Part shown: one piece after another, positions 11,336 through 63,842 of the stretch
Position numbering within the stretch: the stretch's first letter is position 1
How the letters are laid out: every line of letters begins with the position of its first letter
Virus record (IMG/VR): IMGVR_UViG_3300044640_002737
Location: 1 to 64,000 of that record
DNA from: a virus
Reading direction: 5' to 3' (one strand)
DNA length: 64,000 nt
Position numbers and translations under genes: made by a program
Notes under the pieces: model-generated
Seen by the model: only the letters and a program-made list of their open reading frames with translations
Told to the model about the DNA's origin: nothing
The model's database searches: none

Positions 11336-11827
11336 TTAATTTGATGACCTAATTAATCTAAATCCTGTTATTGTTTTTCTTGGGTTGAATATTAATAATG
11401 TGTCAACATCATCGCTCGGATCAAATGGATCATAATCAGGATAAACTATACCGGAGTAGTTATTTTCCATTAGTATTTTTGTTCCATCCAGAGACATAAC
11501 TTCTTCCTCGTCAGGATTTCCTACTATGCTACCTATCCAGTCTTCCGTATCTATGCCATTGTCGCTAAATAGATTCGATATTACATCGGAGTAGATGTGT
11601 GGAATAGTATCTCTAACTACTCCTTCATACAGATATGATTCACCCCTGTCAAATATCATATTATTATAATATTCGTTACCGTGTTCAAGATCTAAAGAAA
11701 ACCACATTGGCGATTCCCCAAGAATGTTGATTGCTACCGGACTGTTATGATAAACATTATTTGGTATAAATCCTCCATCGTCAGTGCTTTCGAATAAGAA
11801 ATCCTCATATGAATTTATATTTAGCAT
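11336..11827 (-). CDS. Tagged protein of unknown function (163 aa)
   Basis: The start MLNINSYEDFLFES resembles the capsid-targeting N-terminus of T4 internal proteins (MKTYQEFIAEA) and recurs in about 13 proteins here. The rest is acidic and was not recognised; the segment GFIPNNVYHNSP and ends such as YEGVVRD recall ADP-ribosyltransferase-like phage proteins, but no catalytic motif is clear. Start and stop of adjacent genes share a base (TAATG at 11827). Confidence 0.6.
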   Translation of the reverse strand: MLNINSYEDFLFESTDDGGFIPNNVYHNSPVAINILGESPMWFSLDLEHGNEYYNNMIFDRGESYLYEGVVRDTIPHIYSDVISNLFSDNGIDTEDWIGSIVGNPDEEEVMSLDGTKILMENNYSGIVYPDYDPFDPSDDVDTLLIFNPRKTITGFRLIRSSN

Positions 11828-12681
11828 TACTTGAATAATTTTTTTATATCATCCTGCTTATCAGTATATGCACCTAGATCTTTTTGAAAATCTGCTAGGG
11901 CTTCGTCGCCATCTCCATATGTTTTACCGGTTACTGTCCCTATGTATTGCATAGCTTGAGTGGTGCTTGGTTTATCTGAAGCAGTATATTTACCCTCTTG
12001 ATTTGCATCCACACCTATTTTCTTTAATCTCTCTCTGTATCTTTGTACAACTTCTGGATTATTATTTGTATCGTTAGTAAATACATCTTGCTTAGGTTTA
12101 AATCCTCTCATATCAGTTCCTGATGCAGCATCAATACTTCTTTTTATGATTTGATCAAATTCAGTAGATTTAATTTTATCCTTTATTGCCTTGGTGTCTT
12201 CAACAACCTTCATTATAGATCTTGCCTTTTCAACTAGAGATTTACCTTTATCAAAAAGTGCGGATCCTGCTATTTTGGATCCTCCTTTGCCAAGAAACTC
12301 AGTTTTCCATTTATCAATAACACCACCGTTTCTGTTTATAATATCCAGTTGTGACGATATTTTAGACAGCGTGGAGGATCTCTCCTTTCCTGTCATATCA
12401 CCTTTACCCTGTTCCTTTATGATCTCTTCCAGCTTAACAAATGAATCTCTAAGAAATGATACAATCTCCCCAGCAGATGATTTTGCTGCGTCCCTATCCT
12501 TTTCGTTTGCCATTCCAATTATATTATCAACCTTATTGGCTGTTGTTATAACCATATTTCTTATGGCTTCGGCAGAATATAAATCAGCAGGAACATCAGA
12601 TCCCATTTGAGCTGATGACTTATCACCGGATATTATTTTTTTAGCAGTATTTAGAAATCCACCGAAATTTTCTATTAGCAT
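11827..12681 (-). CDS. Tagged, helical Lys-rich protein (284 aa)
   Basis: N-terminus MLIENFGGFLNTAKK is a weak version of the shared tag. The body is almost entirely helical and Lys/Asp/Ser-rich, with no recognised domain. Internal proteins packaged in T4-type heads are similarly helical and charged. Coupled to its neighbour by a one-base overlap. Function inferred only from tag and company. Confidence 0.6.
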   Translation of the reverse strand: MLIENFGGFLNTAKKIISGDKSSAQMGSDVPADLYSAEAIRNMVITTANKVDNIIGMANEKDRDAAKSSAGEIVSFLRDSFVKLEEIIKEQGKGDMTGKERSSTLSKISSQLDIINRNGGVIDKWKTEFLGKGGSKIAGSALFDKGKSLVEKARSIMKVVEDTKAIKDKIKSTEFDQIIKRSIDAASGTDMRGFKPKQDVFTNDTNNNPEVVQRYRERLKKIGVDANQEGKYTASDKPSTTQAMQYIGTVTGKTYGDGDEALADFQKDLGAYTDKQDDIKKLFK

Positions 12682-12691
12682 TTTTAATTAA

Positions 12692-13390
12692 TTATTTATT
12701 AGCCCCGTATAATATAGACTCCACAAATTTAGTTACACCAGATAGCCAATCTGTATAGTTTTCTTCTGATTTTAAATCATCAACTTTAGCCTCTTCCTTG
12801 TCTATATTAGATATCTCATTAGATGCTGCTTGAGTAAATGCAAAAACCGCTTCCTTATAATACGGTAATGCTTTTTGTATTTGTGTGTAATAAATTTCCT
12901 TGGCTTCGTCTAAATCTTTTTGAGCTGCTTTTTTAAGATCTGCTTTTTTACCATCAGCTATTTCTTTAGAAATTTTGCCTGCTTTTTGTTCATCATCTAT
13001 TTCTTTAATCCCGTCATTGTACGAGGTTACTACTTTATTATTAGCTTCGCTTTTAGGAGCTTTAGTTTCTAGATAAGATGCTATTGAATTTAATCCCTTG
13101 AGCATCTTAAGATGTGATTGTAAATCAGGTTTTAAAGAATCTGCTAATGAATATTTTCTGTCGCTAACATCTCTTAGAACGGAAGGGGTTTTTACTGATA
13201 TGTTACCTGCCATATCATCTATAGCAGCTAGTGCTTCACCAATAGCCATTTTATATGATATTGCTGATGTTTTACCAGTATCACTTTTAATGTATCCTAT
13301 ATTTTCCTTATATTTAATTCCAGATTTAGATTCACCGTCTTTCTCTAAAATTGAATTTACTTTAAATTTATGAAAATTATTTACTTGCAT
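12692..13390 (-). CDS. Tagged, helical Lys-rich protein (232 aa)
   Basis: Starts MQVNNFHKFKVNSILEKDG, a divergent tag. Helical, with many Lys and Ala, e.g. KAAQKDLDEAKEIYYTQIQK. Not recognised. It lies 4 bases from the 424-aa gene and 10 from the 284-aa gene, so the four genes form one operon. Confidence 0.6.
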   Translation of the reverse strand: MQVNNFHKFKVNSILEKDGESKSGIKYKENIGYIKSDTGKTSAISYKMAIGEALAAIDDMAGNISVKTPSVLRDVSDRKYSLADSLKPDLQSHLKMLKGLNSIASYLETKAPKSEANNKVVTSYNDGIKEIDDEQKAGKISKEIADGKKADLKKAAQKDLDEAKEIYYTQIQKALPYYKEAVFAFTQAASNEISNIDKEEAKVDDLKSEENYTDWLSGVTKFVESILYGANK

Positions 13391-13394
13391 ACAA

Positions 13395-14669
13395 TTATTT
13401 AGAAATAAGCTCCTTTATTTTATCCTTATTAGAATCAAATTTATTTATTGCTGATTGCAATTCAGGTGTTAATTTTTTACCGTCCTCAGTAGCCTTAGCT
13501 AAATCTTCACCGATTAGTCCACCGATCATCTTAGCAACTTTAACTATGGAAGTCTCAGTATTTTTTCCATAAAGTCCATCAGCTTTTATATTATCGTTAG
13601 GAAACAATGTGTTGAATTTTTCCTGGAAAGCTTTAATTTTTTCTAGATTTGGACCTTTCTTGGTTAGATTTTTCTTATCTACATTACCTGACGATATTAA
13701 TTCAGGTTTATCCTCCTCTTTTTTATCCTCCTCTTTTTTAGCTTCTTCTTCTTCCTTGCCGTCAGTTTTTACTAATTTTTCATCCTCAATTTTCTTAGAG
13801 TCAATCTCGGATATTTTACCAATTGCTGAATTTATCAATTCTATGATTCCTGATATTCCATCAGAAACTTTTTTATCTATGCCAATTTTAAGAAGCTCCG
13901 ATTTTCTAACATCATTCATATCAGAATTTAATTTATCCATTTCTGAATTGATTCTTTCTAGTTCTTCTTTTCTAGTTCTTCTTTTCATAGATTCCCATTT
14001 GGTCTCATCCGAAAGTAAGTCATACATCGTTTTTAAACTTTTAGCGGTCTCAACTGATTTTGACTTAAGATTTGCTGATACTGCATTTTTAGCCTGTTGA
14101 ACACTTTCTGCATAGAAAGGTTTTATTTTACTTATTAATGCGTTTCTCTCATCCACGAAAGTATTTTTTTCAAAGATATAATCTGAATCAGAATAATTGG
14201 CATCAAATGAATTATTATCCTTCTCAACTTTTTCTTCGTTAGGTTTAAGTTCCTTAGAAGAAGTTTCTAAACCTTTTTGCTTTTCTATAATTTTTCTATA
14301 GATTGCTTTATTAATTTCTTCCAGAGATTTTTTACCCTCTTCTGTGTCTAATAAAGTTGCATAAACTTCTTTTATTTGTTTACCAGCTTGTGTTATGTCG
14401 CCACCAATTTCTTTGTAAGTTGGGTCTATTTTAGAAACAACTTTTCTTAAAATTGAATCCATAATTTCACCTTTCTTACCTGCTTCTTTTTCCTCTGCAA
14501 CTTCAAGTAAATCGCTAATTGCATCCTTATAATCACCTATTTTAGTAACAAGTGAACCATAAGCCTGAAAGAAAAGATCGACTATTTGTTCAGCTGCGCT
14601 AGCAGATTTATTTACTTCCTCAGCTTCATTTAATTTATGATAGCTTGAAAAACTTAATACTCTATCCAT
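13395..14669 (-). CDS. Tagged protein with C-terminal peptidoglycan-binding-like domain (424 aa)
   Basis: N-terminus MDRVLSFSSYHKLNEAEEV carries the shared tag, including LNEA, which fits the T4 prohead protease rule (L/I)-x-E then A/G/S. The centre is a long charged coiled coil, with a Glu/Lys run near residues 300-320. The C-terminus (KIKAFQEKFNTLFPNDN, KADGLYGKNTETSI) resembles a PG_binding_1 fold. First gene of its operon, with a class B promoter at 14694-14704. A packaged, ejected cell-wall-contacting protein is plausible but inferred. Confidence 0.65.
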   Translation of the reverse strand: MDRVLSFSSYHKLNEAEEVNKSASAAEQIVDLFFQAYGSLVTKIGDYKDAISDLLEVAEEKEAGKKGEIMDSILRKVVSKIDPTYKEIGGDITQAGKQIKEVYATLLDTEEGKKSLEEINKAIYRKIIEKQKGLETSSKELKPNEEKVEKDNNSFDANYSDSDYIFEKNTFVDERNALISKIKPFYAESVQQAKNAVSANLKSKSVETAKSLKTMYDLLSDETKWESMKRRTRKEELERINSEMDKLNSDMNDVRKSELLKIGIDKKVSDGISGIIELINSAIGKISEIDSKKIEDEKLVKTDGKEEEEAKKEEDKKEEDKPELISSGNVDKKNLTKKGPNLEKIKAFQEKFNTLFPNDNIKADGLYGKNTETSIVKVAKMIGGLIGEDLAKATEDGKKLTPELQSAINKFDSNKDKIKELISK

Positions 14670-14693: not shown

Positions 14694-14704
14694 CTATATA
14701 TCAA
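14694..14704 (-). promoter_or_regulatory. Class B promoter motif
   Basis: TTGATATATAG followed by AGAAAATAAATAA on the minus strand, about 25 bases before the 424-aa tagged gene and just past the terminator of the glycan operon. Confidence 0.55.
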
Positions 14705-48573: not shown

Positions 48574-48599
48574 TTATATAAATGAAATTCATTTATGAG

Positions 48600-48832: not shown

Positions 48833-48837
48833 CAATA

Positions 48838-48873: not shown

Positions 48874-48896
48874 AATATTTAAGTTTTATTATTATC

Positions 48897-49025
48897 TTAA
48901 CCTACTATTACATCTTCCGGTTTCTCGTATTGGCCATTATACCATTTTGCAATCCCCACCTGTACAAACGGGTTATTGCCTTGTGGCATAAAATTAATGG
49001 CGATATTTCCGAAGAATGTTTTCAT
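48897..49025 (-). CDS. Small monocistronic ORF (42 aa)
   Basis: ATG 49023-49025, TAA 48897-48899. Sequence begins MKTFFGNIAINFMPQGNNPF and ends KPEDVIVG. It has a class A promoter and a perfect terminator, the same layout as the 33-aa ORF at 41687. No family recognised. Confidence 0.65.
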   Translation of the reverse strand: MKTFFGNIAINFMPQGNNPFVQVGIAKWYNGQYEKPEDVIVG

Positions 49026-49078
49026 TTTGTTTTTAATGTTTAATAGACTATATATCTAATTGATTTTAATATTTTATG

Positions 49079-49115
49079 CAAATTTATAATAAAGTTTCGA
49101 TTAAAAAAAATATTT
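49079..49115 (-). promoter_or_regulatory. Class A promoter of 42-aa ORF
   Basis: Minus strand: T-tract, AATCG, 11 nt, TAAATTTG. Confidence 0.7.
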
Positions 49116-49141
49116 TTTGATTTTTTTTTGATTTTTATTAT

Positions 49142-49537
49142 TTACATATATGTGGTAGGAGAAAATAAGCTATTGAATGTCATAGATACTCCCTGTATTT
49201 TTTTATTCAGCATAGTAAATGAATCCGAAGGACTAGCCTTCCATTTACCACCGCTATTGAATGGACCGTTTGAATCCTCTGGGGTTATTCCGGTTGTGAA
49301 TGTACCGTTAGGAAAAAATACTAATCCCCATGTATGCTCTTTCTTAAATATACCTTTGGGCGATTTTACCTCGATTATCCAAGAATTATTTGGTGGGTTC
49401 ATCCTAACAGGTCCTCCTCCATGGAAGTGGTCTTCTTTAGCTCCAGCTTTTTTAAGAAAATCCGGCATCTTTGGTAAAGCTGCCTCCTCGTTAATTGGAT
49501 ACGAGAAACTTTCGAAAGTTTTTATATTATTGCTCAT
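49142..49537 (-). CDS. Tagged protein of unknown function (131 aa)
   Basis: N-terminus MSNNIKTFESFSYPINEEAA carries a clear tag (KTFESF, INE-E/A). The rest has Gly/Pro-rich beta-like segments (FHGGGPVRMNPPNNSWIIEV, WGLVFFPNGTFTTG). Not recognised. Coupled with the upstream tagged 434-aa gene (one-base overlap). Confidence 0.65.
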   Translation of the reverse strand: MSNNIKTFESFSYPINEEAALPKMPDFLKKAGAKEDHFHGGGPVRMNPPNNSWIIEVKSPKGIFKKEHTWGLVFFPNGTFTTGITPEDSNGPFNSGGKWKASPSDSFTMLNKKIQGVSMTFNSLFSPTTYM

Positions 49538-50841
49538 TATTTACAAACTGTTCTTATTTTAAATTGGGTTCCAGCTACCGGTGAGAAAGCAACTAATTTA
49601 ACTGCGTCTCTTACTGCATTTTTAGTAACCTCTATACTTAAACTCTTTATGTCAGCCTTTGGAGATTCTTTTAATGCACCAGATTTAAGCAGATCGTATG
49701 TCCATTCCCAAACTTTATTGGTGTCATCTATTTTAATTTCACTAAGATCCTTATTTCTATAGACCTCTATTTTTCCTGCTGAATCAAAAAATTCCGGACA
49801 AAGTTCTTTGATAGGTTTTAGACCAAGCGAAGATAGTTTAGTCTCTATTGCTTTAACCAATGAACCACCTTTATTGATAACATTATTAAGGTAATCCTTA
49901 TAATCAATAACTAAATAATTTTTTCCTCCAATGTTCTCTCTTTTACCAGGAGCATTTTTACCCGCTTTAGCATCTGCATTTAACGCATCCTCTTTTTCCT
50001 TGCTATATTCACCTCTAATATATTTAGCACCGAATGCACCCATAAATGGTGAAAGTTTAATCTCCTTTCCTGAGTATGAAAATAATATAGCATCTGGTAT
50101 AACTAATGGATCAAAGAATATCTCCATTTTCTGGCCAGCCTTAGCTGTAAGGTAAACTGTTTTATCATAACCTGCATATCCGTTGCTAGCATCAGCCTTT
50201 CTACCAGAGAAACTTTTATCCATTTTACATGATATCTTTATATCATCACCAATTGGTTCACCACTTGCTACGAGTGTCGCAGAAATAAATTGATTGTCCT
50301 TAAATTTCTGATCATCCGGATTATCACCTTTAGATTTATCATAATCTGGTCCAATATTAGGCATTGGCTTATTTATGAATTCCATTTTCTTTTCGGCGGA
50401 CTTAAGAAATTCCTTCCTGTCCATACCTTCACCGAATGTATTGTACATTAGGTCTTTTATCAACTCAACAACAGTATTACCTCTAGCTTTACATAGGCCG
50501 TCATTATCTGTTGAATAACCTGCAGCCTTTAATGCTTTTGCAACAGATCCTGATGGATTGACAGGAACCTTACTTGATGCTGAAGATATTGTTACATTAA
50601 GTTTCTGACCGATGTAGTTCTGATTATTTAAAACTGGAATTATCCTATTTTTAAAATCTACCTCTAATTTTTTTATCTGATCTGGACTTACGTCATCTTT
50701 TTTAAATTCACCGCTATCAAATTTAAAATCCCAAGGGGAGGATTTAGAGTCAGCCTCATTTAGAGTTCCGTTTGGAGTCTCTGTTAAAAGCTTATAATTT
50801 ATGAAATCACTTAATGATTCGAAAACAAATTTCTTAGACAT
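49537..50841 (-). CDS. Tagged protein of unknown function (434 aa)
   Basis: N-terminus MSKKFVFESLSDFINYKLLT followed by ETPNGTLNEAD; two protease-like sites (LTE-T, LNE-A). The body is mixed alpha/beta, without a recognised domain. Preceded by a class B promoter at 50863-50873. Likely virion-associated by tag and promoter. Confidence 0.65.
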   Translation of the reverse strand: MSKKFVFESLSDFINYKLLTETPNGTLNEADSKSSPWDFKFDSGEFKKDDVSPDQIKKLEVDFKNRIIPVLNNQNYIGQKLNVTISSASSKVPVNPSGSVAKALKAAGYSTDNDGLCKARGNTVVELIKDLMYNTFGEGMDRKEFLKSAEKKMEFINKPMPNIGPDYDKSKGDNPDDQKFKDNQFISATLVASGEPIGDDIKISCKMDKSFSGRKADASNGYAGYDKTVYLTAKAGQKMEIFFDPLVIPDAILFSYSGKEIKLSPFMGAFGAKYIRGEYSKEKEDALNADAKAGKNAPGKRENIGGKNYLVIDYKDYLNNVINKGGSLVKAIETKLSSLGLKPIKELCPEFFDSAGKIEVYRNKDLSEIKIDDTNKVWEWTYDLLKSGALKESPKADIKSLSIEVTKNAVRDAVKLVAFSPVAGTQFKIRTVCK

Positions 50842-50862
50842 TCTTATTTGGATTTATTTTAA

Positions 50863-50873
50863 CTATATATCCA
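50863..50873 (-). promoter_or_regulatory. Class B promoter motif
   Basis: TGGATATATAG followed by TTAAAATAAATCC on the minus strand, 22 bases before the 434-aa tagged gene. Confidence 0.55.
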
Positions 50874-50882
50874 ATAGCAATA

Positions 50883-51479
50883 TTAGTATTTTTCAATAAA
50901 ATATATTGTGGTATATGCAATTTTATTCTCCTGTCCACCGATAATAACACTCTTAACAATTACACAAATACCGACATAACAATTATCAAGGTCCAATCTC
51001 ATTACCGCATCGTGGCCTGGTGATTTTGAAAATTTTGTTATTATATCCTTAGCGAGCATATCATCGGATTTTTGAGAAGCAGTGAAATAGTTTCCGCCGT
51101 TTGCATTTGCCATATTACAGATCTCACCTAAAGTATAATTGGTACTTTCCTTAATTATACCGAATTCCTTTCCTCTATCCTCGGGGGTTTTTAATTCCTT
51201 AAAGTTCGGGACGTCGATTGTTTCAGTGTGTGCATCCATTTGCTCTGATCCATCATCAACCTCCATTATTTGCTTCATTTTATTAAAGCTAACTCTGGAC
51301 ATCCATTGGGTGTGGTGATAAGCAGCTTTATTTATGGTATCTGAATATTTTACCGGTTTTAGCTTATTTAATTTTCTATAAGCATTAAGTTCTTTTAAGA
51401 CCAATCCTTCTAAATTGGTCTGAGCATATAGAACATTTTGAACTAGAGTTAATAATAGGAATAGAATCATTTTTTTCAT
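50883..51479 (-). CDS. Secreted CAP/SCP-domain protein (198 aa)
   Basis: Signal peptide MKKMILFLLLTLVQNVLYAQ. CAP-like features: LKELNAYRKLNKLKPVKYSD, INKAAYHHTQWM, a later HTET, and SPGHDAVMRLDLDNCYVGIC. CAP proteins are secreted and can bind lipids or act as proteases; function here unknown. The -7 box of its promoter ends 4 bases before the ATG, predicting a leaderless mRNA. Confidence 0.75.
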   Translation of the reverse strand: MKKMILFLLLTLVQNVLYAQTNLEGLVLKELNAYRKLNKLKPVKYSDTINKAAYHHTQWMSRVSFNKMKQIMEVDDGSEQMDAHTETIDVPNFKELKTPEDRGKEFGIIKESTNYTLGEICNMANANGGNYFTASQKSDDMLAKDIITKFSKSPGHDAVMRLDLDNCYVGICVIVKSVIIGGQENKIAYTTIYFIEKY

Positions 51480-51483
51480 ATAT

Positions 51484-51520
51484 CAAATGTAATATATGTA
51501 ATCGGATAAAAAAAATAATT
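51484..51520 (-). promoter_or_regulatory. Class A promoter of CAP gene
   Basis: Minus strand: T-tract, ATCCG, 11 nt, TACATTTG, then only ATAT before the ATG. Confidence 0.7.
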
Positions 51521-51533
51521 TACGTATTATTTA

Positions 51534-53366
51534 TTATAAACCATATTTTGATTTTGTTGAATTATAATTAGTTGAAATTTCCGAAGCGCTCAACCCTCTA
51601 GTATAGAAATATGATGCACCGATTTTACCATTTAGATATGTTGATCCAATACCCGCCCCAATATATCCTAGGTATAGAGGATTCGATTCCGAATACCCAT
51701 CTGTCCCGTGTGCCGTTGTAATATATTCCGTAGTATTAATATAAACTTTAGTTGTATTTGCTGTTGCTGTAATTTGTGATATAAAAGTAAATAAGTACCA
51801 AGTATTTGTTGTGACGGTTAAAGTAGAATCAACAATTCTTTGAACACCTGTTCCATTTGTTACTGACCTAACTTTACCACCATTAGAAAATAAACCCCCC
51901 CAGTATCCATCAAACCCAAACGATCCCGATAATTTACCAAAGACCGGTATCTGTGTATTCAGTGCAGGTAACACATCGAATTTAACCCAAACCTGAATCG
52001 TTCTTTGTGTCGTGGTATTTAAACTAAGATTTGAAGTGTGTGGAATACTAATTGTGTTACTAGTACCATTTAAATCAAAAATACCACCGTCCGTTGACGA
52101 CCAAGTCGCCCCATTAATAGTCGCATTATTTCCGTTACCAGTCTCATCCGTCCATGTACCTGATGTATAATTACTAGCATCAAGCTTCATGAATAAACTA
52201 CTGGTAATTATACCGGGAGCTATAGTTGTCGTTGTTGTCGTTGTTGGAGCTATAGTTGTCGTTGTTGTCGTTGTTGAGGCTATAGTCGTCGTAGTCGTGG
52301 TGCTAGTTGTAGTCGTAGTCGTAGTCGTAGGAGCTATAGTCGTCGTAGTTGTGGTGCTTGTGGTGCTAGTCGTAGTCGTGCTAGTCGTCGGTATTATGAA
52401 TCTCGGCAAGAATGAATTATATATTGATGTTATTTCGGAATCACTTAATGTTCTGTCGTATATAATAGCATTGGATATGGATCCATTAAATAAATTTGAA
52501 CCTGTATCATATGAACCTATAAAAACGTTACCGTCACCAGAAAATGTAATATTATCAGCTGAACTATCTTCCAATACACCATTCAGATATAGTTTCCATC
52601 CTGCTGCCGAACTAAAGGTTACTGCACCACAATACCAAGTATTAAGGTTAAGAGTGGTTGATGATTCAACTATATTCCAGGAACCATTATGTCCAGATTG
52701 TAATTTATTTGTTGCGCCCAGCCAAAAAGCATGCTGTCCCTGACCAGATCCAGATCCTCCACTTATTAGATTATTTGCATTAGAAAAGCTATTAACATAA
52801 AACCAGATTATCTTGGTGTATTCGTTATTTGATAATACGGGTGAACCATTGTTTATATCTACATAATCACTTGCCCCATTAAATACAATATTACCTTTTT
52901 GTAAATTACTGAATGTCGATCCCATTAGATTTCCTGAATTACCATTTCTGGAGAGGTCATACCACTCATTACCTGTTCTTGGATATGATGCAGTAAATCC
53001 TGCATCCAGAAGCATATTAAGGCCTTCAGTTGGTATCGAGGGGTATTCCATATTGATACATATTGTATCGTCCTGATCATATAACCATAATAATGCATCA
53101 GATACTGTTGTTATCGATGATCCACCAAATGCATTAATTGAGATTAATCCAACGAGATCCAAATCAGATTCTGGTGAATATATCGAAGGTCCTTGTTCTG
53201 CCTTATTTATATAGATGACATATCCCGATGGTGTAACGTCATAGCCTTGCCAAAAATTAGTTTCCGGTGTTGATCCATATCCCGTTACGCCAACCCCTAG
53301 GTTCATGTTATTTCTCCCTATAGTATATGGTAGTGGTGTTATTGAATATTTTACTGGATTTGACAT
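51534..53366 (-). CDS. Virion adhesin with two LamG-like domains and Thr-rich linker (610 aa)
   Basis: N-terminal ~125 residues (MSNPVKYSITPLPYTIGRNN) look like a virion anchor. Domain 1 (~130-330) and domain 2 (~395-610) are LamG/concanavalin-like, each ending with a loop such as IIYDRTLSDSEITSIYN and FYTRGLSASEISTNYN. Between them is a ~60-residue Thr tract broken by IAP and S, probably an extended spacer. A receptor-binding fibre or decoration protein is inferred; a class B-like motif lies upstream. Confidence 0.78.
   Translation of the reverse strand: MSNPVKYSITPLPYTIGRNNMNLGVGVTGYGSTPETNFWQGYDVTPSGYVIYINKAEQGPSIYSPESDLDLVGLISINAFGGSSITTVSDALLWLYDQDDTICINMEYPSIPTEGLNMLLDAGFTASYPRTGNEWYDLSRNGNSGNLMGSTFSNLQKGNIVFNGASDYVDINNGSPVLSNNEYTKIIWFYVNSFSNANNLISGGSGSGQGQHAFWLGATNKLQSGHNGSWNIVESSTTLNLNTWYCGAVTFSSAAGWKLYLNGVLEDSSADNITFSGDGNVFIGSYDTGSNLFNGSISNAIIYDRTLSDSEITSIYNSFLPRFIIPTTSTTTTSTTSTTTTTTIAPTTTTTTTTSTTTTTTIASTTTTTTTIAPTTTTTTTIAPGIITSSLFMKLDASNYTSGTWTDETGNGNNATINGATWSSTDGGIFDLNGTSNTISIPHTSNLSLNTTTQRTIQVWVKFDVLPALNTQIPVFGKLSGSFGFDGYWGGLFSNGGKVRSVTNGTGVQRIVDSTLTVTTNTWYLFTFISQITATANTTKVYINTTEYITTAHGTDGYSESNPLYLGYIGAGIGSTYLNGKIGASYFYTRGLSASEISTNYNSTKSKYGL
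52205..52395. repeat. Thr-codon tract (GTCGTTGTTGTC-type repeat)
   Basis: Trinucleotide-rich coding repeat for the Thr linker of the LamG adhesin. The Val-rich ORF on the other strand is its shadow. Confidence 0.9.
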
Positions 53367-53380
53367 GGATTCCTTTTTTT

Positions 53381-53393
53381 ATATATATTCAAA
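53381..53393 (-). promoter_or_regulatory. Class B-like promoter motif
   Basis: TTGAATATATATA then AAAAAAAGG on the minus strand, ~15 bases before the LamG adhesin gene. Less perfect than other sites. Confidence 0.4.
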
Positions 53394-53411
53394 TCAAGGA
53401 ATCGGGTTTTG

Positions 53412-53837
53412 CTATTCCTTATTTATATACTTCCATCTTTTAATCTCGCAGCTTTCCGGTAATTTCTTTTCCTTTAAATATAGATTTATTTGACCCAACA
53501 TATTTCCGGATCCTATTGGATTATGAGAGTGTATATAACATTTGGGTATTTTGTGACCAGTTGCTCTAGAATGCAAGATAAGCCATTTAGCTACGTCCAT
53601 TCCTGTGGGTTCTAGTATTTGTGAATAGTCTATTGAGTAATTTTTTTTAACATATTCAAAATAGTGGGATGTTGCTGAATGATCCAAGTCATGGTCCAGC
53701 GAGAGAATATCTATGTTATCTAGTCCAACCTCTAATATCTTATTAACGAACTCCTCATAATTTCTTACTATAATCCATTCCCCGTTATTAGGATGTTCGG
53801 TGGGCGTTCTAAAATCGTCTAAATAAATTGATATCAT
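53412..53837 (-). CDS. cREC (cyclic-phosphate processing receiver-like) protein (141 aa)
   Basis: Receiver-like fold with IYLDDFRTPTEHPN, ILSLDHDLDHSA, EPTGMDVAKWL and KCYIHSHNPIGSGNM, matching the predicted cREC domain that is thought to work in RNA repair. The ATG at 53837 is preferred; a longer start at 53867 lies in a terminator hairpin. Located directly downstream of three tRNAs. Confidence 0.72.
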   Translation of the reverse strand: MISIYLDDFRTPTEHPNNGEWIIVRNYEEFVNKILEVGLDNIDILSLDHDLDHSATSHYFEYVKKNYSIDYSQILEPTGMDVAKWLILHSRATGHKIPKCYIHSHNPIGSGNMLGQINLYLKEKKLPESCEIKRWKYINKE

Positions 53838-53857
53838 ATTAAAATTATTTTTAATAA

Positions 53858-53885
53858 AAAATCCCACCCTTATTGGGCGGGATTT
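53858..53885 (-). terminator. Terminator after tRNA trio
   Basis: AAATCCCACCC/GGGCGGGATTT (one mismatch) with loop TTATT, downstream of tRNA-Met on the minus strand. Confidence 0.8.
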
Positions 53886-53887
53886 AG

Positions 53888-53961
53888 TGGTCCAGCCTGG
53901 ACTCGAACCAGGGACCTACGCATTATGAGTGCGGTGCTCTAACCAACTGAGCTACAAGACC
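53888..53961 (-). tRNA. tRNA-Met or Ile2 (CAT)
   Basis: Anticodon arm CCGCA-CTCATAA-TGCGT; acceptor GGTCTTG/CTGGACC. No initiator features, so elongator Met or lysidine-type Ile. Confidence 0.88.
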
Positions 53962-54015
53962 TTTTTGATGGACGTAGGTTCATCACCTACTTTTGGCTCT
54001 CCATCAAAGCCGTTG

Positions 54016-54097
54016 TACTCCCTGAGAGACTCGAACTCTCACACCTCTCGGCACTAGATCCTAAGTCTAGCGTGTCTACCAATTCCACCAAAGGAGC
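54016..54097 (-). tRNA. tRNA-Leu(TAG), copy 2
   Basis: Class II; anticodon arm CTAGA-CTTAGGA-TCTAG; related to copy 1 at 39819. Confidence 0.92.
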
Positions 54098-54105
54098 ATT
54101 TTTTG

Positions 54106-54179
54106 TGACCCCGACACGATTCGAACGTGTGACCTATTCATTAGAAGTGAATTGCTCTATCCAGCTGAGCTACGGGGCC
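54106..54179 (-). tRNA. tRNA-Arg(TCT)
   Basis: Anticodon arm TTCA-CTTCTAA-TGAA; acceptor GGCCCCG/CGGGGTC. Reads AGA/AGG, common codons in AT-rich phages. Confidence 0.93.
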
Positions 54180-56892: not shown

Positions 56893-56901
56893 GATATATA
56901 G
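56893..56901 (+). promoter_or_regulatory. Class B promoter motif
   Basis: TTGATATATAG then TTTATAGTAAAAAATAAA, 25 bases before the 464-aa tagged gene, divergent from the class A promoter. Confidence 0.55.
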
Positions 56902-56926: not shown

Positions 56927-58321
56927 ATGGAAAACAAATTATTATCATTTTCTGATTTCGAGCACCTATATGAATCATATGGATTTATTAACGAATCAGA
57001 AGTAAAAGCAGAGGATCCTTTATTATTCGATCCATTTGCTCCCGCTGCTGATGCGGAAAAAATTGCAGACCTATTAGCACCAACCGAAGAAAAGCCTGTT
57101 GATGAGGCTGGACCAACACCAAGTGAATTCAAACCTCTAAAAAAAGGCGAGAAGAGTAAGAGGGTTACTGAATTACAAAAGGACCTAGGAATGAGCGCTA
57201 AAGAGGCTGATGGAGCATTCGGTTCAGCTACTGAAGCTAAGGTTAAGGAATTCCAGAAAACTAACAAACTTACCGTTGATGGTATTGTTGGAGTTCAAAC
57301 GCTTAGAAAATTATTAGAATTATCTAAATCAATAAAGGATACTGCTAAGCAAGATGCTGATATAGTGAAAAGATACAATGTAAAAACTGCTGAAGATGCT
57401 AAAAAAGCTGGGATTAACCCAATTCTTCTTAAAATCTATCAATCTATAACGGTTGTTAAATACGGTAGCAAAACATTAGTTATATGTATACCTAAAAAAG
57501 ATGCAGCCACACAAGTAAAAGCACTAGAGGGTACAACACTATTGGATGCTAACTTAGCATTTATTAAAAATGCAGCAACTGCAGTTGGTAAGGCTATAGT
57601 TTATACTGTAACTGGAGCTGTTGTTATGGCTTTGGATGGTGCAATGGCTATTTTATCTGCTGTAGCATCTGCTTCTAAATTCCTTGCAGATGGTGTTATG
57701 TACACGGCAGGTGCAGCTATTCAAGGATTAGCTTCTATCGCGAATTGGGCTTCTATAAAAGGTGCAGCCATCTATAAAAAGGTTTCAGATAAAGCTAATG
57801 CATTCTTCACCAAATTTGCTCAGGATTCAGCTAAGGCACTTAAATCAACAGTACAAGGGGCAACAGCCTTTTTCGATGGTATTAAAGCAGGAGCTAAAAC
57901 ATTGGGATATGTTCTTACTGGTCTAGCAGTTAGTGCTTTTAAATCAGTAGCTACTTTCTTGTCACCAGCATTAAAAACAATAGTTCAGGGAGCTAAGGAC
58001 GGAGCAGCAGTGATTGCTGGAGGAATGGCTTGGATTGGTAAGAATGTTAAGGACGGAGCAGCAGATTTCGCCAAAACTATTAAAGCTGGTTGGGATGCAT
58101 CAGTTAAATTTACTACCAATGCTTACAATGGAGGTAAGAAAATGCTATCAGATGCAGGTAAAGCACTTAGTAGCGCATATGACGAAGCTGCTAAAGCAAC
58201 TACAGATTTCTTTACTCAGATGTACAATACAGGTAAAGCAGTTTGGGAATCAACATGTAATTCATTCGAGGATTCACATTTTATATTTGAAGATCTTGTA
58301 TGGGACATCGAATTAGCATAA
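56927..58321 (+). CDS. Tagged protein: PG-binding domain plus amphipathic helices (464 aa)
   Basis: Tag MENKLLSFSDFEHLYESYGF with INES at about residue 21-24. Residues ~67-125 form a PG_binding_1 domain (GEKSKRVTELQKDLGMSAKE, ADGAFGSATEAKVKEFQK, TVDGIVGVQTLRKLL). From ~195 on it is a series of Ala/Gly-rich amphipathic helices (KAIVYTVTGAVVMALDGAMA, TLGYVLTGLAVSAFKSVATF). The combination suggests a packaged protein that crosses the cell envelope during DNA entry; inferred. Terminator follows at 58341. Confidence 0.75.
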   Translation: MENKLLSFSDFEHLYESYGFINESEVKAEDPLLFDPFAPAADAEKIADLLAPTEEKPVDEAGPTPSEFKPLKKGEKSKRVTELQKDLGMSAKEADGAFGSATEAKVKEFQKTNKLTVDGIVGVQTLRKLLELSKSIKDTAKQDADIVKRYNVKTAEDAKKAGINPILLKIYQSITVVKYGSKTLVICIPKKDAATQVKALEGTTLLDANLAFIKNAATAVGKAIVYTVTGAVVMALDGAMAILSAVASASKFLADGVMYTAGAAIQGLASIANWASIKGAAIYKKVSDKANAFFTKFAQDSAKALKSTVQGATAFFDGIKAGAKTLGYVLTGLAVSAFKSVATFLSPALKTIVQGAKDGAAVIAGGMAWIGKNVKDGAADFAKTIKAGWDASVKFTTNAYNGGKKMLSDAGKALSSAYDEAAKATTDFFTQMYNTGKAVWESTCNSFEDSHFIFEDLVWDIELA

Positions 58322-58765: not shown

Positions 58766-59347
58766 TTAATTGGAGATTTCATAGAATTTATCCAGAATAA
58801 CATCAACCGAATTTTGTTTTGTTTCGTCGTTTGTAGTTTGTAGTATAAGCTGTGCTAGTTCTGCAACATTTGATACCAGAAGCGAATACTCTGGATAGAA
58901 TGTTGTATATGCGTCTTTCTTCGATAATGAAATGACATCAATCAGTATTGCTTCAAGATATTCTATGGATGATGTTATATTTCCAGATAGTACCTCATTA
59001 TCATTATCGTCAGTGGTTACTACAGTTTCAGTATATTTAGAAAGTTCGCTATTCATAAGCTTCAATTCATCCTTCGTTTTTGGTAGTGAATTAGCAGCCT
59101 CCTCAGCTTCTGATTTTTTTATTTTTCTTACCATATCATAAGGAACCCTTACCACATTTCTAGGACCATCCATAAGCTGTATCCTTAAAAAATCACCCTC
59201 CTTACCAAGAACCTGACCTATACCTCTATATGAAGTTATATAATCGCCATCCTCGACTTCCTTTGAATCGTCGGAATGAAAATATGTACCAGGATTTTTC
59301 ATAAAATCATCCAGATCGAAATCTTCGTATAATTTTACAAATTTCAT
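58766..59347 (-). CDS. Tagged protein of unknown function (193 aa)
   Basis: Starts MKFVKLYEDFDLDDFMKNPG (tag KLYEDF). Contains a small beta segment (GDYITSYRGIGQVLGKEGDF) like an SH3-type fold, then helices. Not recognised. Three bases from the next tagged gene. Confidence 0.62.
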   Translation of the reverse strand: MKFVKLYEDFDLDDFMKNPGTYFHSDDSKEVEDGDYITSYRGIGQVLGKEGDFLRIQLMDGPRNVVRVPYDMVRKIKKSEAEEAANSLPKTKDELKLMNSELSKYTETVVTTDDNDNEVLSGNITSSIEYLEAILIDVISLSKKDAYTTFYPEYSLLVSNVAELAQLILQTTNDETKQNSVDVILDKFYEISN

Positions 59348-59350: not shown

Positions 59351-59554
59351 TTATCCTTTAAATTTAGATTTAGCCTCTTTATAATCCTCTTCCGAAAGTT
59401 CCCAACCATCATTAGTTTTAGCTATAAATAATTTAGCATCCTTATATGAAGGGCTTTTAACAGATCCAAAAAACATTTCAAGTTCTTTGTATATTGCTGG
59501 GCTGATTCCTTTCTTTTCAAGAAGATATTCGTTGTATTCCTTTAAGTGTTCCAT
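59351..59554 (-). CDS. Tagged small protein (67 aa)
   Basis: Starts MEHLKEYNEYLLEKKGISPA; tag LKEYNEYLLEK. The remainder is a short helical domain. Unknown. Confidence 0.6.
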   Translation of the reverse strand: MEHLKEYNEYLLEKKGISPAIYKELEMFFGSVKSPSYKDAKLFIAKTNDGWELSEEDYKEAKSKFKG

Positions 59555-59585: not shown

Positions 59586-59882
59586 TTAGAGACTCCAAGC
59601 GGGATTTGCAATTATAAGTAAGTTACCTTCCACTCTTGGTAGTTCCTTTGTTGAGTGATAATCGTCATATTGTATTTGATCTGGGTAAAACTTCTTTCCG
59701 TTGAAAACTATATAATTGTCCTCGGATCTTTCACCCTCTCCTCTAACACTAAATTCCTGTGTTTTTAGAGCATCTCTCGTTGCAGCCTTTATTGTTGGCT
59801 TACCAAAAATACTATTCCAGAAGCTCTCGTTTATATCAGATTCACTGGATCTGAATGATTCATAACCCTTAATATTATCCAT
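59586..59882 (-). CDS. Tagged small protein (98 aa)
   Basis: I use the ATG at 59882 (MDNIKGYESFRSSESDINES), which yields a clear tag with INES; the longer frame from 59921 overlaps the upstream gene. The rest ends LPRVEGNLLIIANPAWSL. Unknown. A class B motif is at 59896-59909. Confidence 0.62.
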   Translation of the reverse strand: MDNIKGYESFRSSESDINESFWNSIFGKPTIKAATRDALKTQEFSVRGEGERSEDNYIVFNGKKFYPDQIQYDDYHSTKELPRVEGNLLIIANPAWSL

Positions 59883-59895: not shown

Positions 59896-59909
59896 TTATT
59901 ATATATCCT
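59896..59909 (-). promoter_or_regulatory. Class B promoter motif
   Basis: AGGATATATAATAAA on the minus strand, inside the 3' end of the upstream gene and ~15 bases before the 98-aa tagged gene. Confidence 0.5.
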
Positions 59910-60183
59910 TAATCTTCTCAACTATTATCTGAAGATCACTGGTTCCTTTTATTATTCTATGCCAAGTACCTTTTGGTATTTTTATTTTAGCTCTAATATT
60001 AATCGGTAATTCATTATCGAACTGAAACATCCAATCACTTTCACCGATAGGATAAACTATTCTATCCTCATTATCCCAGTGCCACTTGAGTTCATTTGGG
60101 TCTATATTGCTATCAAATTTTCTAACAACGGTTTCTATAGATCCCTTGGAAACCACTGATTCCATAAATGGTGATTTTACCAT
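59899..60183 (-). CDS. Unknown protein, cupin-like look (94 aa)
   Basis: Contains WHWDNEDRIVYPIGESDWMF, then INIRAKIKIPKGTWHRIIKG and DLQIIVEKI, a beta-rich pattern with His/Glu spacing like a small cupin. Not verified. Overlaps the upstream tagged gene by 7 bases. Confidence 0.55.
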   Translation of the reverse strand: MVKSPFMESVVSKGSIETVVRKFDSNIDPNELKWHWDNEDRIVYPIGESDWMFQFDNELPINIRAKIKIPKGTWHRIIKGTSDLQIIVEKIKDI

Positions 60184-60761
60184 GGTCTGCTAGATTTAAT
60201 ACCAAGTAATTTTCTATACCTTGCAACATTACATGACCACCATCTAGCTTTCCATCTAGGTCCAGGATTATCACACCTCATTCTTTTTTGAAATGATCTT
60301 GATTTAGCTGGATCGTTATTATTAACCCTCATACCAGGCTGACCAAATCCAAGCTTTATTACATTTCCTGATTCATTCTTTGTATACACTGCGAATTTTC
60401 TAGGACCTCCAGGAGTTCTGAATGGTTTATTCAGATCAACATCTCTGCCCCTATATTCTGCCTCGTATAATTCATGATCAACATAGAATGGTACATCTAG
60501 CAATACTGTTTCGTTTTCATATACACCTTTACTGCCAGCATCTGTACTGATTAGGAATAGATCATCCTCACATAGATCAATGACGTTGTTCTCCCATAGA
60601 ATCCTAGCCTCATTAATTATAGATAACCAAGATTCAGATTCTATTCTATATACACTTTCCATAAGTGGTATATTTTTATCTATGTGATATGATAAACCCT
60701 CACTTATTGATTGATTTCTTTGTGTATAAGACATTGATTCGTATGTGGTGATGTATTTCAT
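60177..60761 (-). CDS. Tagged conserved phage protein (194 aa)
   Basis: Tag MKYITTYESMSYTQRNQSIS with ISEG. The C-terminal half (PFRTPGGPRKFAVYTKNESG, SRSFQKRMRCDNPGPRWKAR, WWSCNVARYRKLLGIKSS) is a pattern found in structural-region genes of T4-like and giant phages; I do not know its function. A class B-like motif (60789-60805) lies upstream. Confidence 0.68.
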   Translation of the reverse strand: MKYITTYESMSYTQRNQSISEGLSYHIDKNIPLMESVYRIESESWLSIINEARILWENNVIDLCEDDLFLISTDAGSKGVYENETVLLDVPFYVDHELYEAEYRGRDVDLNKPFRTPGGPRKFAVYTKNESGNVIKLGFGQPGMRVNNNDPAKSRSFQKRMRCDNPGPRWKARWWSCNVARYRKLLGIKSSRPW

Positions 60762-60788: not shown

Positions 60789-60805
60789 GATTTAATTATA
60801 TATCG
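60789..60805 (-). promoter_or_regulatory. Class B promoter motif
   Basis: CGATATATAATTAAATCGC on the minus strand, ~30 bases before the 194-aa tagged gene, back to back with the sigma-gene promoter. Confidence 0.5.
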
Positions 60806-61838: not shown

Positions 61839-62315
61839 ATGACAAATTCTATATCTTATTATAATAGTAAACTTGACTCAGTCTCGATGGGGAGATTATT
61901 CAACATACTTAAGTTCCCTAAGATAAATCCAACAGTATTAATAATATCTTCATTATTTATGACTCTGCTTCTATCTGTTGTAACTGGAGCTATTGTATTA
62001 TTTACTATCCTATTATTAGTTTTATTGTTTGAATATTATTCAGTGAGATCAACGAGGATCAAGTTATTGGATGTCTGTCTTGTTGACGAGATATTACTTA
62101 CTGATGATTTCGCAGTAAATGGAAAAAGCAAAGAATTTCCGGACGATCCTGTATATGTAACTGAAGCAGATCGGGAATATATTTTTTCTGATGCTGTTTA
62201 TCAGGTTTCTCCTCCAGGTATTAAGGAAACACTAAAAAGCCATCGAATTTCTATATTAAATACGATGGCCTCTTTTATAATCTTTTATATACTATTGCAT
62301 AATTACATAGCGTAA
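61839..62315 (+). CDS. Membrane protein (158 aa)
   Basis: A central hydrophobic hairpin (VLIISSLFMTLLLSVVTGAI, VLFTILLLVLLFEYY) and a C-terminal membrane segment (MASFIIFYILLHNYIA). Cytoplasmic/acidic stretch between. Not recognised. Ends overlap the converging tagged gene by 13 bases. Confidence 0.7.
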   Translation: MTNSISYYNSKLDSVSMGRLFNILKFPKINPTVLIISSLFMTLLLSVVTGAIVLFTILLLVLLFEYYSVRSTRIKLLDVCLVDEILLTDDFAVNGKSKEFPDDPVYVTEADREYIFSDAVYQVSPPGIKETLKSHRISILNTMASFIIFYILLHNYIA

Positions 62316-63163
62316 TTAGCACCTGACATAATTCCTTTATCTGTTAAGAATGTTCTATAAGCAAGATTAATTCTCTCTGCTGTTAATCCAGTTTCAGCTG
62401 CCATCTTATTAACTGCCGCTCTATGAGCTTTAGTGATGTCTCTGAAGATTTCGTTTCTTCTTAGTGAATTAATAAGAGCAAAAACTTTAGATCCAACTTC
62501 CAATTGCATTTTCTTTTGAGCTGCTCTTTGAGCTGCTGCTCTAGGTCCTGCTGCAATAGCTTCCTCTCTGTGTTTAGTAGAAACTGTAGGATCCTGAACT
62601 GCTTCAGATGCCAAATTAGCTACTTGAGAAACCGGTTTATTTTGGAAAAATTCGTATGCTCTAAGTAATTTAGGGTAGATTGTCTCAGAAGAAGTTTCAC
62701 CAGTACCATTAATTAGATTAACAAATTTGTTAACTGTACGTCCAACTGTTCTGATTGAATCAAGTCCAATGGCATCACCAAGAGCTGCAGTACTAACTTT
62801 AAATGCTCTGCTGTCATCATCATATTCACCGAACTGATCGATACCATCAACCATTACCAAATATTTACCTGGATCATTTTCCTGAGCTTTTCCTAATGCC
62901 CTTAGGTAAAGTGCTGCTAATTGTGGTTTAGTTAGAATTTGAAAATCCCTAGCAAGTGCTGCTTTTTCTCCACTTCCTAATTCTTCGTCATCCAGCCAAT
63001 CCATATCCTCGTCATCTTCTGATAAGTCATAAGTCATAGTGTCTTCATCGATATTAAAATCACCATCAGCATGGTTAGCCATCATATCATCATAAGCTTC
63101 ATTTATAATGTCGCTAGTTTCAGAGACATAAGCTTCGAATAATTTAATGTGTTTATTGTTCAT
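62303..63163 (-). CDS. Tagged protein of unknown function (286 aa)
   Basis: Tag MNNKHIKLFEAYVSETSDII followed by NEAYDD (IINE-A). The acidic N-terminal third gives way to a helical body (LAALYLRALGKAQENDPGKY, AAQRAAQKKMQLEVGSKVFA). Not recognised. Upstream class B motif at 63185-63195 supports late expression. Confidence 0.65.
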   Translation of the reverse strand: MNNKHIKLFEAYVSETSDIINEAYDDMMANHADGDFNIDEDTMTYDLSEDDEDMDWLDDEELGSGEKAALARDFQILTKPQLAALYLRALGKAQENDPGKYLVMVDGIDQFGEYDDDSRAFKVSTAALGDAIGLDSIRTVGRTVNKFVNLINGTGETSSETIYPKLLRAYEFFQNKPVSQVANLASEAVQDPTVSTKHREEAIAAGPRAAAQRAAQKKMQLEVGSKVFALINSLRRNEIFRDITKAHRAAVNKMAAETGLTAERINLAYRTFLTDKGIMSGANYAM

Positions 63164-63184
63164 ATTTTTTTATATTTTTATAAT

Positions 63185-63195
63185 CTATATATTCT
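63185..63195 (-). promoter_or_regulatory. Class B promoter motif
   Basis: AGAATATATAG then ATTATAAAAATATAAAA on the minus strand, 22 bases before the 286-aa tagged gene. Confidence 0.5.
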
Positions 63196-63842
63196 TAATC
63201 CAGAGATAATTCTCCCCCTTTTGCTCCACCAGCAAGAAGTTCTTTAGCTTTAGCAGCATCTATTAACTGTCCGCTTGTTATCATCTTCATTTTCTCTATG
63301 TCCTCCGGCTTATAGAATCTCTTCATCATAGGAAGACCAATATTTAGAAGATATGTCCCTGTCTTTTTAATACCACCTGGTGTAACACCTGTTCTTTTAA
63401 GAAGATCTACAAACTTCATAACGATCTCATCCATATCAGCAGCAGTAACTTCCCATTCACCTTCTGCCGAAGGATCGTGATCTTTTGTAGTTTCATCCAG
63501 CCATTTAGATATAGCTTTAGGATCCATTTTACCTTTAGCAGGATCGAAATAAAATTCAGCAAGTGCTTGTAGTGTGAGATCTTTGTTACATGTTTTACCA
63601 ACATTTCCTGGTTTACCCCCTCCAAACTTGATGCATGCTTTTTGAAAGATCTTTTTATAAGGCTCCATTATTGAAGCTTCGTCGTTTATGTCACCATCCA
63701 TCATCGTAACGATCTGTGGTGCTATACTTAGCGAGAATGGGTTTGCTATTGCTCTAGCAAAAACAGGCATGGTTTTAAATATACCAAGATCTGCCTCATT
63801 TAATTCAGAGTTAAATTCTGAATAGCTCTTTATCTTATCCAT
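63195..63842 (-). CDS. Tagged protein of unknown function (215 aa)
   Basis: Tag MDKIKSYSEFNSELNEADLG, the best match to T4 IP-type signals (KSYSEF then LNE-A). The rest is helical with a Gly/Asp-rich C-terminus (LLAGGAKGGELSLD). Stop/start overlap with the upstream partial gene (TAATG). Confidence 0.66.
   Translation of the reverse strand: MDKIKSYSEFNSELNEADLGIFKTMPVFARAIANPFSLSIAPQIVTMMDGDINDEASIMEPYKKIFQKACIKFGGGKPGNVGKTCNKDLTLQALAEFYFDPAKGKMDPKAISKWLDETTKDHDPSAEGEWEVTAADMDEIVMKFVDLLKRTGVTPGGIKKTGTYLLNIGLPMMKRFYKPEDIEKMKMITSGQLIDAAKAKELLAGGAKGGELSLD

What the first reader, a model, noticed from the sequence alone, without database searches (positions are those of the whole stretch)
11336..63842. 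About 13 proteins share a capsid-targeting-like N-terminal tag
Proteins starting at 11827, 12681, 13390, 14669, 49537, 50841, 56927, 59347, 59554, 59882, 60761, 63163 and 63842 begin with a variant of K-x-(Y/F)-x-(E/D/S)-F followed within ~20 residues by (L/I)-(N/S/x)-E-(A/S/G). Examples: MDKIKSYSEFNSELNEADLG; MSNNIKTFESFSYPINEEAA; MENKLLSFSDFEHLYESYGF then INES. T4 internal proteins start MKTYQEFIAEA, which targets them into the prohead and is cut by gp21 after (L/I)-x-E. The bodies are otherwise unrelated, several are Lys-rich and helical, and two carry PG-binding-like domains. This predicts a large set of packaged, ejected effector proteins. Four of the tags (12681, 13390, 59347, 59554) are weak.
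Basis: partly seen in the sequence, partly recalled or inferred. Interest (0 to 1): 0.9.

Follow-up and report, generated by a model that had tools for sequence, protein, structure and literature searches.

The report
Phage-wide packaging tag on virion cargo
A giant, Lak-related phage puts the same short start-of-protein address label, of the kind phage T4 uses to load a few proteins into its head, on roughly 30 to 45 otherwise unrelated proteins (enzymes included), which suggests that it carries a large ready-made toolkit inside the virion and delivers it with its DNA.

Summary
The tag is real and genome-wide. Its conserved positions, [FY]xx[FY] then [LI]xE, are those that mutagenesis of T4's capsid-targeting sequence assigned to targeting (Y4, F7) and gp21 processing (I8, E10). 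The phage has a gp21-family protease, fused to about 12 tandem 14-residue repeats (YSEYLAEN) that share the tag core: 12 of the proteome's 14 internal core matches lie there. Tagged genes share a late-type promoter (GATATATA; 18/34 vs 43/485, p=8e-10) with the protease, sheath and tail fibres. Cargo includes adenylate kinase (the F..F[LI]NE core is invariant in 14 orthologs), a RimK-type ligase, SLT/CHAP/PG-binding proteins and, in a 735-kb relative, a full Glu-tRNA synthetase. Independent check: in cyanophage S-CREM2 all four non-structural enzymes (tail-hub endolysins apart) found in the virion by published mass spectrometry carry the tag. Packaging and cleavage in this uncultured phage remain inferred. 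A new, much expanded variant of the T4 internal-protein system.

The parts
11336..11827 (-). Tagged protein, 163 aa: MLNINSYEDFLFE|S. F/Y pair at residues 7 and 10; predicted cut after E13
   Evidence: PWM 16.0 bits, homologs left out; no homolog in the three relatives compared; structure prediction failed, pLDDT 32
11827..12681 (-). Marginal tag, 284 aa: MLIENFGGFLNT; no clear [LI]xE site; Lys-rich helical body
   Evidence: PWM 6.1; in the operon below the promoter at 14695
12692..13390 (-). Weak tag, 232 aa: MQVNNFHKFKVNSILE|K
   Evidence: fails the PWM here (-5.0), but the ortholog in the 430-kb relative starts MKIKSFHDFRIYEK and scores 11.8
13395..14669 (-). Tagged protein, 424 aa: MDRVLSFSSYHKLNE|A
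   Evidence: PWM 3.5; ortholog 37% id starts MKRVLDFSGYSKIFEA; own late promoter
14695..14702 (-). Late-type promoter element GATATATA (GATATATAG) heading the operon 14669->11336
   Evidence: element enriched before tagged genes, p=8e-10; coordinates
49142..49537 (-). Tagged protein, 131 aa: MSNNIKTFESFSYPINE|E
   Evidence: PWM 17.0
49537..50841 (-). Weakly tagged protein, 434 aa: MSKKFVFESLSDFINYKLLTETPNGTLNE|A
   Evidence: PWM 2.3; distant homolog in the 735-kb phage (E=0.008) has a clear tag, MRVLKFNEYDKINEEE; late promoter
50864..50871 (-). Late-type promoter element GATATATA heading 50841->49142
56893..56900 (+). Late-type promoter element GATATATA before 56927
56927..58321 (+). Tagged protein, 464 aa: MENKLLSFSDFEHLYE|S...INE|S; peptidoglycan-binding domain at residues 83-129
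   Evidence: PWM 9.5; Pfam PG_binding_1 E=2e-13
58766..59347 (-). Tagged protein, 193 aa: MKFVKLYEDF; no clear [LI]xE site after the pair
   Evidence: PWM 11.8
59351..59554 (-). Tagged protein, 67 aa: MEHLKEYNEYLLE|K
   Evidence: PWM 15.9; ortholog 45% id starts MENIKNYPDFLFEA
59586..59882 (-). Tagged protein, 98 aa: MDNIKGYESFRSSESDINE|S
   Evidence: PWM 15.1; late promoter
59900..59907 (-). Late-type promoter element GATATATA heading 59882->58766
60177..60761 (-). Tagged protein, 194 aa: MKYITTYESMSYTQRNQSISE|G
   Evidence: PWM 7.1; ortholog 70% id starts MKYIKTFESQ and scores 15.3
60797..60804 (-). Late-type promoter element GATATATA before 60761
62303..63163 (-). Tagged protein, 286 aa: MNNKHIKLFEAYVSE|T...DIINE|A
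   Evidence: PWM 14.6
63195..63842 (-). Tagged protein, 215 aa: MDKIKSYSEFNSELNE|A
   Evidence: PWM 17.0; distal in an operon headed by GATATATA at genome position 64871, outside the window

Best explanation
The shared N-terminus is a capsid-targeting propeptide of the T4 internal-protein type, used on an unusually large scale. Shown from sequence: about 30-45 unrelated proteins carry [ILV]xx[FY]xx[FY] near the start, usually followed at once or within about 15 residues by [LIV]xE. The head-maturation protease is fused to a tail of about 12 14-residue repeats whose core (YSEYLAEN) is the same as the tag core. Tagged genes share a promoter element with capsid and tail genes. Inferred: late in infection the tagged proteins are made together with the head proteins. 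The aromatic pair of each tag docks into the helical scaffold core, mimicking a scaffold repeat. The shell closes round the loaded core. The activated protease then cuts after [LI]xE in the scaffold repeats, the major capsid protein (HSLNE|S) and each tag. The scaffold leaves as small peptides, and the freed cargo stays among the DNA and enters the next host with it. There it would act before phage genes are expressed: peptidoglycan hydrolases and binders for entry, nucleotide and protein-modifying enzymes for takeover, and unknown effectors.
For: (1) The conserved positions equal the residues mapped in T4 IPIII: 4 and 7 for targeting, 8 and 10 for processing (PMC9026906). (2) The tag is N-terminal only and far above chance; the cut site is separately enriched. 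(3) A gp21-family protease is present. The MCP cut region YCHYHSLNES is kept in 42 of 43 relatives. (4) The tag core occurs internally 14 times in the whole proteome, 12 of them in the protease tail; 12/19 and 7/11 in two relatives. (5) A promoter element is shared with the protease, sheath and tail fibres. (6) Tags are inherited: 14 of 17 tagged genes have tagged reciprocal-best orthologs, versus 3 of 235 untagged. In 14 adenylate-kinase orthologs F..F[LI]NE is invariant while the residues between vary. (7) Enzyme domains start just after the tag: adenylate kinase at residue 24-27, GluRS at 27. (8) Published virion proteomics of cyanophages: S-CREM2 SAM hydrolase, Cas9, kinase and cytidylyltransferase, S-SZBM1 cytidylyltransferase and S-SCSM1 NMNAT all carry the tag. 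(9) The same regex recovers T4 IPI, IPII and IPIII.
Against: There are no virion or cleavage data for this uncultured phage. Fifteen of the 34 tagged genes lack a clear [LIVF]xE site within reach. RaK2 has a gp21-like protease and PTm1 a relative of the same protease with different tail repeats, yet neither shows an N-terminal tag, so the protease alone does not imply the system. The S-CREM2 test is small, and its pattern was widened after looking: with the strict T4-derived pattern it is 3 of 3 (p=0.002 among non-structural genes). It is not obvious why a phage would inject adenylate kinase or a tRNA synthetase. The scaffold repeat matches only the tag core; the residues before the aromatic pair are in a different register, and the 10-residue profile did not pick the repeats out.
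Confidence: 0.86

Rival explanations
1. The N-terminus is a localisation signal for something other than the prohead, such as a phage-made compartment, the membrane or a protein hub, and the likeness to the T4 sequence is convergent.
For: Several cargo proteins (adenylate kinase, GluRS, radical SAM) would make sense inside the infected cell; some tags lack a cut site.
Against: Promoter element shared with capsid and tail genes; [LIV]xE cut site enriched behind the tag; same core in the protease/scaffold and at the T4 gp23 cut site; tagged cyanophage enzymes found in virions; no tag in phiKZ, RaK2 or PTm1.
Confidence: 0.07
2. Tagged proteins are prohead-core (scaffold) proteins only. They bind the scaffold, are chopped up and leave; few or none are delivered as effectors.
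For: Several tagged genes are Lys/Glu-rich and sit by the capsid genes (317070, 315926). T4 gp22, gp67 and gp68 are largely removed (PMC9026906).
Against: Many cargo proteins are complete enzymes or peptidoglycan-active domains with the site at the N-terminus. T4 IPs and tagged cyanophage enzymes remain in the mature virion. Probably true for a minority.
Confidence: 0.05
3. Chance or compositional artefact of Lys/Phe-rich N-termini in an AT-rich genome, or paralogy.
For: Very short loose patterns do occur by chance: the loose regex R1 hits 41 per 1000 internal Met segments.
Against: Leave-homologs-out profile 34 vs 2.7 expected; residues 41-58 control; phiKZ, RaK2 and PTm1 negative; conservation of F..F[LI]NE across orthologs; association with the promoter element.
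Confidence: 0.01

Closest known systems
T4 internal proteins IPI, IPII, IPIII and their capsid-targeting sequence MKTYQEFIAE|A with gp21 protease (Straboviridae)
   Same: Position, length, aromatic pair i/i+3, [LI]xE site, S77/gp21-family protease, unrelated bodies; T4 IPs picked up by the same regex
   Different: About 30-45 tagged proteins instead of a handful; enzymatic cargo; tag and cut site often separated by a spacer; scaffold-like repeats fused to the protease; a promoter element shared across tagged genes
Non-structural enzymes in virions of T4-like cyanophages (S-CREM2, S-SZBM1, S-SCSM1; PMC10665884, PMC9146016, PMC9602691)
   Same: MK.F..FL.E-type tag on SAM hydrolase, APH/ChoK kinase, Cas9, cytidylyltransferase/NMNAT
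   Different: Few per genome; the S-CREM2 paper does not mention a targeting sequence, and the S-CREM2 and S-SCSM1 papers offer carry-over after CsCl purification as an alternative; scaffold separate from the protease
Inner-body and ejection proteins of phiKZ-like phages (phiKZ, 201phi2-1, SPN3US)
   Same: Many cleaved head proteins, cut after a short x-E motif, some delivered to the host (PMC5694885, PMC9026906)
   Different: Propeptides mostly long, S/A-x-E motif, no shared short tag found in phiKZ
Largest known phages LR756501 (735 kb), LR756500 (462 kb) and Prevotella Lak phages
   Same: MCP 30-46% identical, related protease; the 735- and 462-kb phages use variants of the same tag
   Different: Tag wording is clade-specific (MIKKFNEFINEA; MKYIKEYEEFLLEA); Lak-A1 shows another recurrent N-terminus (MNKNIKKLLESLFDDD) and no repeats in the protease

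Membership tests
T4-type capsid-targeting sequence (CTS) on internal proteins | Short N-terminal stretch with aromatic residues at the i and i+3 targeting positions | tested here: met
   Profile and leave-homologs-out counts; T4 residues 4 and 7 (PMC9026906)
T4-type capsid-targeting sequence (CTS) on internal proteins | [LI]-x-E cleavage site at or after the targeting residues | tested here: met
   19/34 tagged vs 56/419 untagged, p=4e-8; not in every gene
T4-type capsid-targeting sequence (CTS) on internal proteins | gp21-family (S77) prohead protease encoded by the phage | tested here: met
   PHROG_207 E=4.6e-37; T4 gp21 region matched E=4e-6; invariant GELDHP and SSR blocks
T4-type capsid-targeting sequence (CTS) on internal proteins | Tagged proteins share only the tag; bodies unrelated | tested here: met
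   N-terminal similarity among genes with body homologs excluded; different Pfam domains
T4-type capsid-targeting sequence (CTS) on internal proteins | Expressed late with head genes | tested here: inconclusive
   Indirect support: GATATATA element shared with the protease, tail sheath, tail fibres and a connector-like protein; no expression data
T4-type capsid-targeting sequence (CTS) on internal proteins | Protein present in the mature virion with the tag removed | not testable with these tools
   No proteome of this phage; published MS of cyanophages shows tagged proteins present, without N-terminal data
T4-type capsid-targeting sequence (CTS) on internal proteins | Tag binds the scaffold core and suffices for packaging | not testable with these tools
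   Only indirect: tag core repeated about 12 times in the scaffold-like tail of the protease
phiKZ-type inner body | Long propeptides cut at S/A-x-E | tested here: not met
   Short tags with [LI]xE; no phiKZ hit to the protease at the search threshold

The most novel reading that the evidence does not exclude
These giant phages turn the head into a programmable protein carrier. The scaffold, an array of tag-like repeats fused to the protease, offers docking sites of one kind, and any gene that gains a roughly 15-residue N-terminal mimic of the repeat and the late promoter becomes injected cargo. Enzymes of cellular type, up to a complete Glu-tRNA synthetase in a 735-kb phage, have been captured this way, giving a preloaded metabolic and translational toolkit of dozens of proteins per virion.
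Probability: 0.55. Interest if true: 0.9.

Novelty: new variant of a known kind. Interest (0 to 1): 0.78.

Why it matters
It gives a sequence rule for predicting which proteins a phage carries into its host, across T4-related lineages that include the largest phages known, most of whose genes have no assigned role. It offers a simple reason why cytidylyltransferases, kinases, SAM hydrolase and even Cas9 turn up in purified cyanophage virions. It points to a docking mechanism (scaffold repeat mimicked by tag) that a few point mutations could test, and to a large set of unstudied effectors that would act in the first moments of infection.

Tried and rejected
A first PWM with low pseudocounts overfitted and was replaced by a leave-homologs-out version. 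The idea that the full 10-residue tag equals the scaffold repeat was not supported: only the 7-8-residue core is shared. Validation with RaK2/phAPEC6 virion MS failed because RaK2 has no such tag. The T4-type late promoter TATAAATA is not enriched. An ADP-ribosyltransferase-like fold for 11336-11827 could not be tested (single-sequence model, pLDDT 32). The AlphaFold model of the protease/scaffold is low confidence (mean pLDDT 45); it shows long helices across the repeats (282-387, 401-475) and nothing more is claimed. A polyprotein reading of the large head-cluster ORFs with internal LNE sites was only glanced at. Chance was examined with internal-Met, residue 41-58, shuffled N-terminus and other-phage controls.
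Full report
WHAT WAS CHECKED. The window is the first 64 kb of a 373,467-bp IMG/VR virus record. I read the rest of that genome piecewise, plus, in whole or large part, a 430-kb relative (G002), LR756500 (462 kb), LR756501 (735 kb), Lak-A1, PAU, PTm1, P-SSM2, T4, phiKZ and RaK2.

THE TAG IS REAL. A de novo comparison of residues 2-19 between genes with non-homologous bodies shows a clear N-terminal excess in this phage and its relatives over residues 41-58, and none in phiKZ or PTm1. A profile trained on four genomes, scoring each gene without its homologs, finds 34 genes above 7 bits here (2.7 expected from internal Met positions) and 26 above 10 (0.7 expected). Consensus: x-[IL]-K-x-[FY]-x-[ED]-F-[LI]-N, followed by E-[ASN] directly or after a spacer. 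The cut-site half was tested separately: 19/34 versus 56/419, p=4e-8. Tagged genes keep tags in the 430-kb relative (14 of 17 above 7 bits, 16 of 17 above 4), while 3 of 235 untagged genes have tagged orthologs. In 14 distinct adenylate-kinase orthologs the two F, the [LI], N and E are invariant and the residues between the aromatics are free.

MATCH TO T4. T4 internal proteins begin MKTYQEFIAE|A. The first 10 residues suffice for packaging, residues 4 and 7 govern targeting, residues 8 and 10 govern cleavage, and gp21 cuts after L/I-x-E (PMC9026906). These are the conserved positions here. The same regex recovers IPI, IPII and IPIII in T4.

PROTEASE AND SCAFFOLD. Outside the window, at genome 320026-321996 (minus strand), next to the MCP (318306-320009), lies a head-maturation protease (PHROG_207, E=5e-37; T4 gp21 region matched at E=4e-6). 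Its C-terminal tail holds about 12 tandem 14-residue repeats such as ISYSEYLAENLDKN, present in the 30 relatives' proteases printed out of 64 recovered. The core [FY].[..][FY][LIVM].E occurs internally 14 times in the whole proteome, 12 of them in this one protein; 12/19 in the 430-kb relative and 7/11 in the 735-kb phage. The T4 gp23 cleavage site (FGSFLTEA) also matches. The MCP carries YCHYHSLNES in 42 of 43 relatives. I infer that the tag mimics a scaffold repeat and that both are cut by the same protease. The residues before the aromatic pair differ in register between tag and repeat, so the mimicry claim covers the core only.

LATE PROMOTER. GATATATA(G) lies within 80 nt upstream of 18/34 tagged and 43/485 untagged genes (p=8e-10), and 17/44 versus 48/605 in the relative (p=1e-7). 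Untagged carriers include the protease, tail sheath, tail fibres and a connector-like protein. No transcript data were available, so 'late' is an inference from the structural genes that share it.

CARGO. Pfam finds PG_binding_1 (56927), SLT (83213), CHAP (84699), OmpA (184924), a RimK ATP-grasp ligase (217114) and adenylate kinase (229845). A 133-aa protein at 95587 matches RNA 2'-phosphotransferase weakly (PHROG_5470, E=2e-4). In LR756501, a complete Glu-tRNA synthetase (E=2e-173 to PDB 6b1z, domain from residue 27) and a radical-SAM protein are tagged. The enzyme domains begin just behind the tag, as expected of an added module. Most tagged proteins have no known domain.

INDEPENDENT TEST. 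Published virion proteomics of the T4-like cyanophage S-CREM2 listed four non-structural enzymes besides two large endolysins encoded among the baseplate genes (PMC10665884). All four start with the tag: SAM hydrolase MKDFDSFLEE, kinase MKRFDAFLTE, cytidylyltransferase MKNFSSFLTEA, Cas9 ...RFASFMAEA. Among non-structural genes, tagged ones are detected 6 of 9 times versus 20 of 184 (p=2e-4). That pattern was widened after looking; the strict T4-derived pattern gives 3 of 3 (p=0.002). The enzyme in S-SZBM1 (MRFRQFIIEA) and the NMNAT in S-SCSM1 (MKSFLQFLKEA) agree. The S-CREM2 and S-SCSM1 papers left open that such proteins were carry-over from CsCl purification; a shared targeting tag argues against that.

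NOVELTY. The CTS is known, and its role as a general loading device in T4-like phages has been suggested (PMC9026906). I found no paper in the searched library that pairs huge phages with capsid targeting or reports the tag in cyanophage virion enzymes. The scale, the enzyme cargo, the fused repeat scaffold and the shared promoter make this a new variant of a known kind.

LIMITS. There are no virion data for this phage; cleavage and injection are inferred; genes were called by a simple ORF method; some tags lack a cut site and may be false or use other sites; sequences of LR756501, Lak-A1 and phiKZ were partial.

Noticed in passing
Sphingomonas phage PAU, L194 (100-120 kb) and elsewhere: About 18 PAU genes share another N-terminus, MKT[LI]xxLYE[SA]KLNEA, including gp154 annotated 'internal capsid protein': a clade-specific tag of the same kind.
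   Followed up: partly
Lak-A1, e.g. L148:14240-15289, L156:3581-4279: With TAG read as Gln, Lak-A1 shows a recurrent N-terminus MNKNIKKLLESLFDDD on unrelated proteins; its protease tail is acidic and lacks the repeats.
   Followed up: no
T4 NC_000866 18966-19130 (gene 61.1): T4 gp61.1 (54 aa, hypothetical) begins MKTFKEFIKED, a typical capsid-targeting start; it could be an unrecognised internal protein.
   Followed up: no
S-SCSM1 ORF93, L274:5627-5836: A 69-aa virion protein carries a tag-like stretch at its C-terminus (KRTFKEFLEYIE), hinting that tags may also work at C-termini.
   Followed up: no
genome 313431-315923 and 322065-324656 (minus strand): Two large head-cluster ORFs contain internal tag-like stretches followed by INES/INEG sites, as if several pieces were cut from one chain.
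   Followed up: partly
window 37975-54179: 32 tRNA genes in about 16 kb, with duplicates for Tyr, Pro, Asn and others.
   Followed up: no
LR756501, L213:13267-14895: Tagged full-length Glu-tRNA synthetase, very similar over its whole length to a bacterial enzyme (PDB 6b1z, E=2e-173): a likely captured cellular gene fitted with the packaging tag.
   Followed up: partly
PTm1 protease, L105:1-1548: The protease of Tenacibaculum phage PTm1 has a different set of tail repeats (IKYDFTKELSEGIEKW) but no N-terminal tag family was found in that phage.
   Followed up: partly
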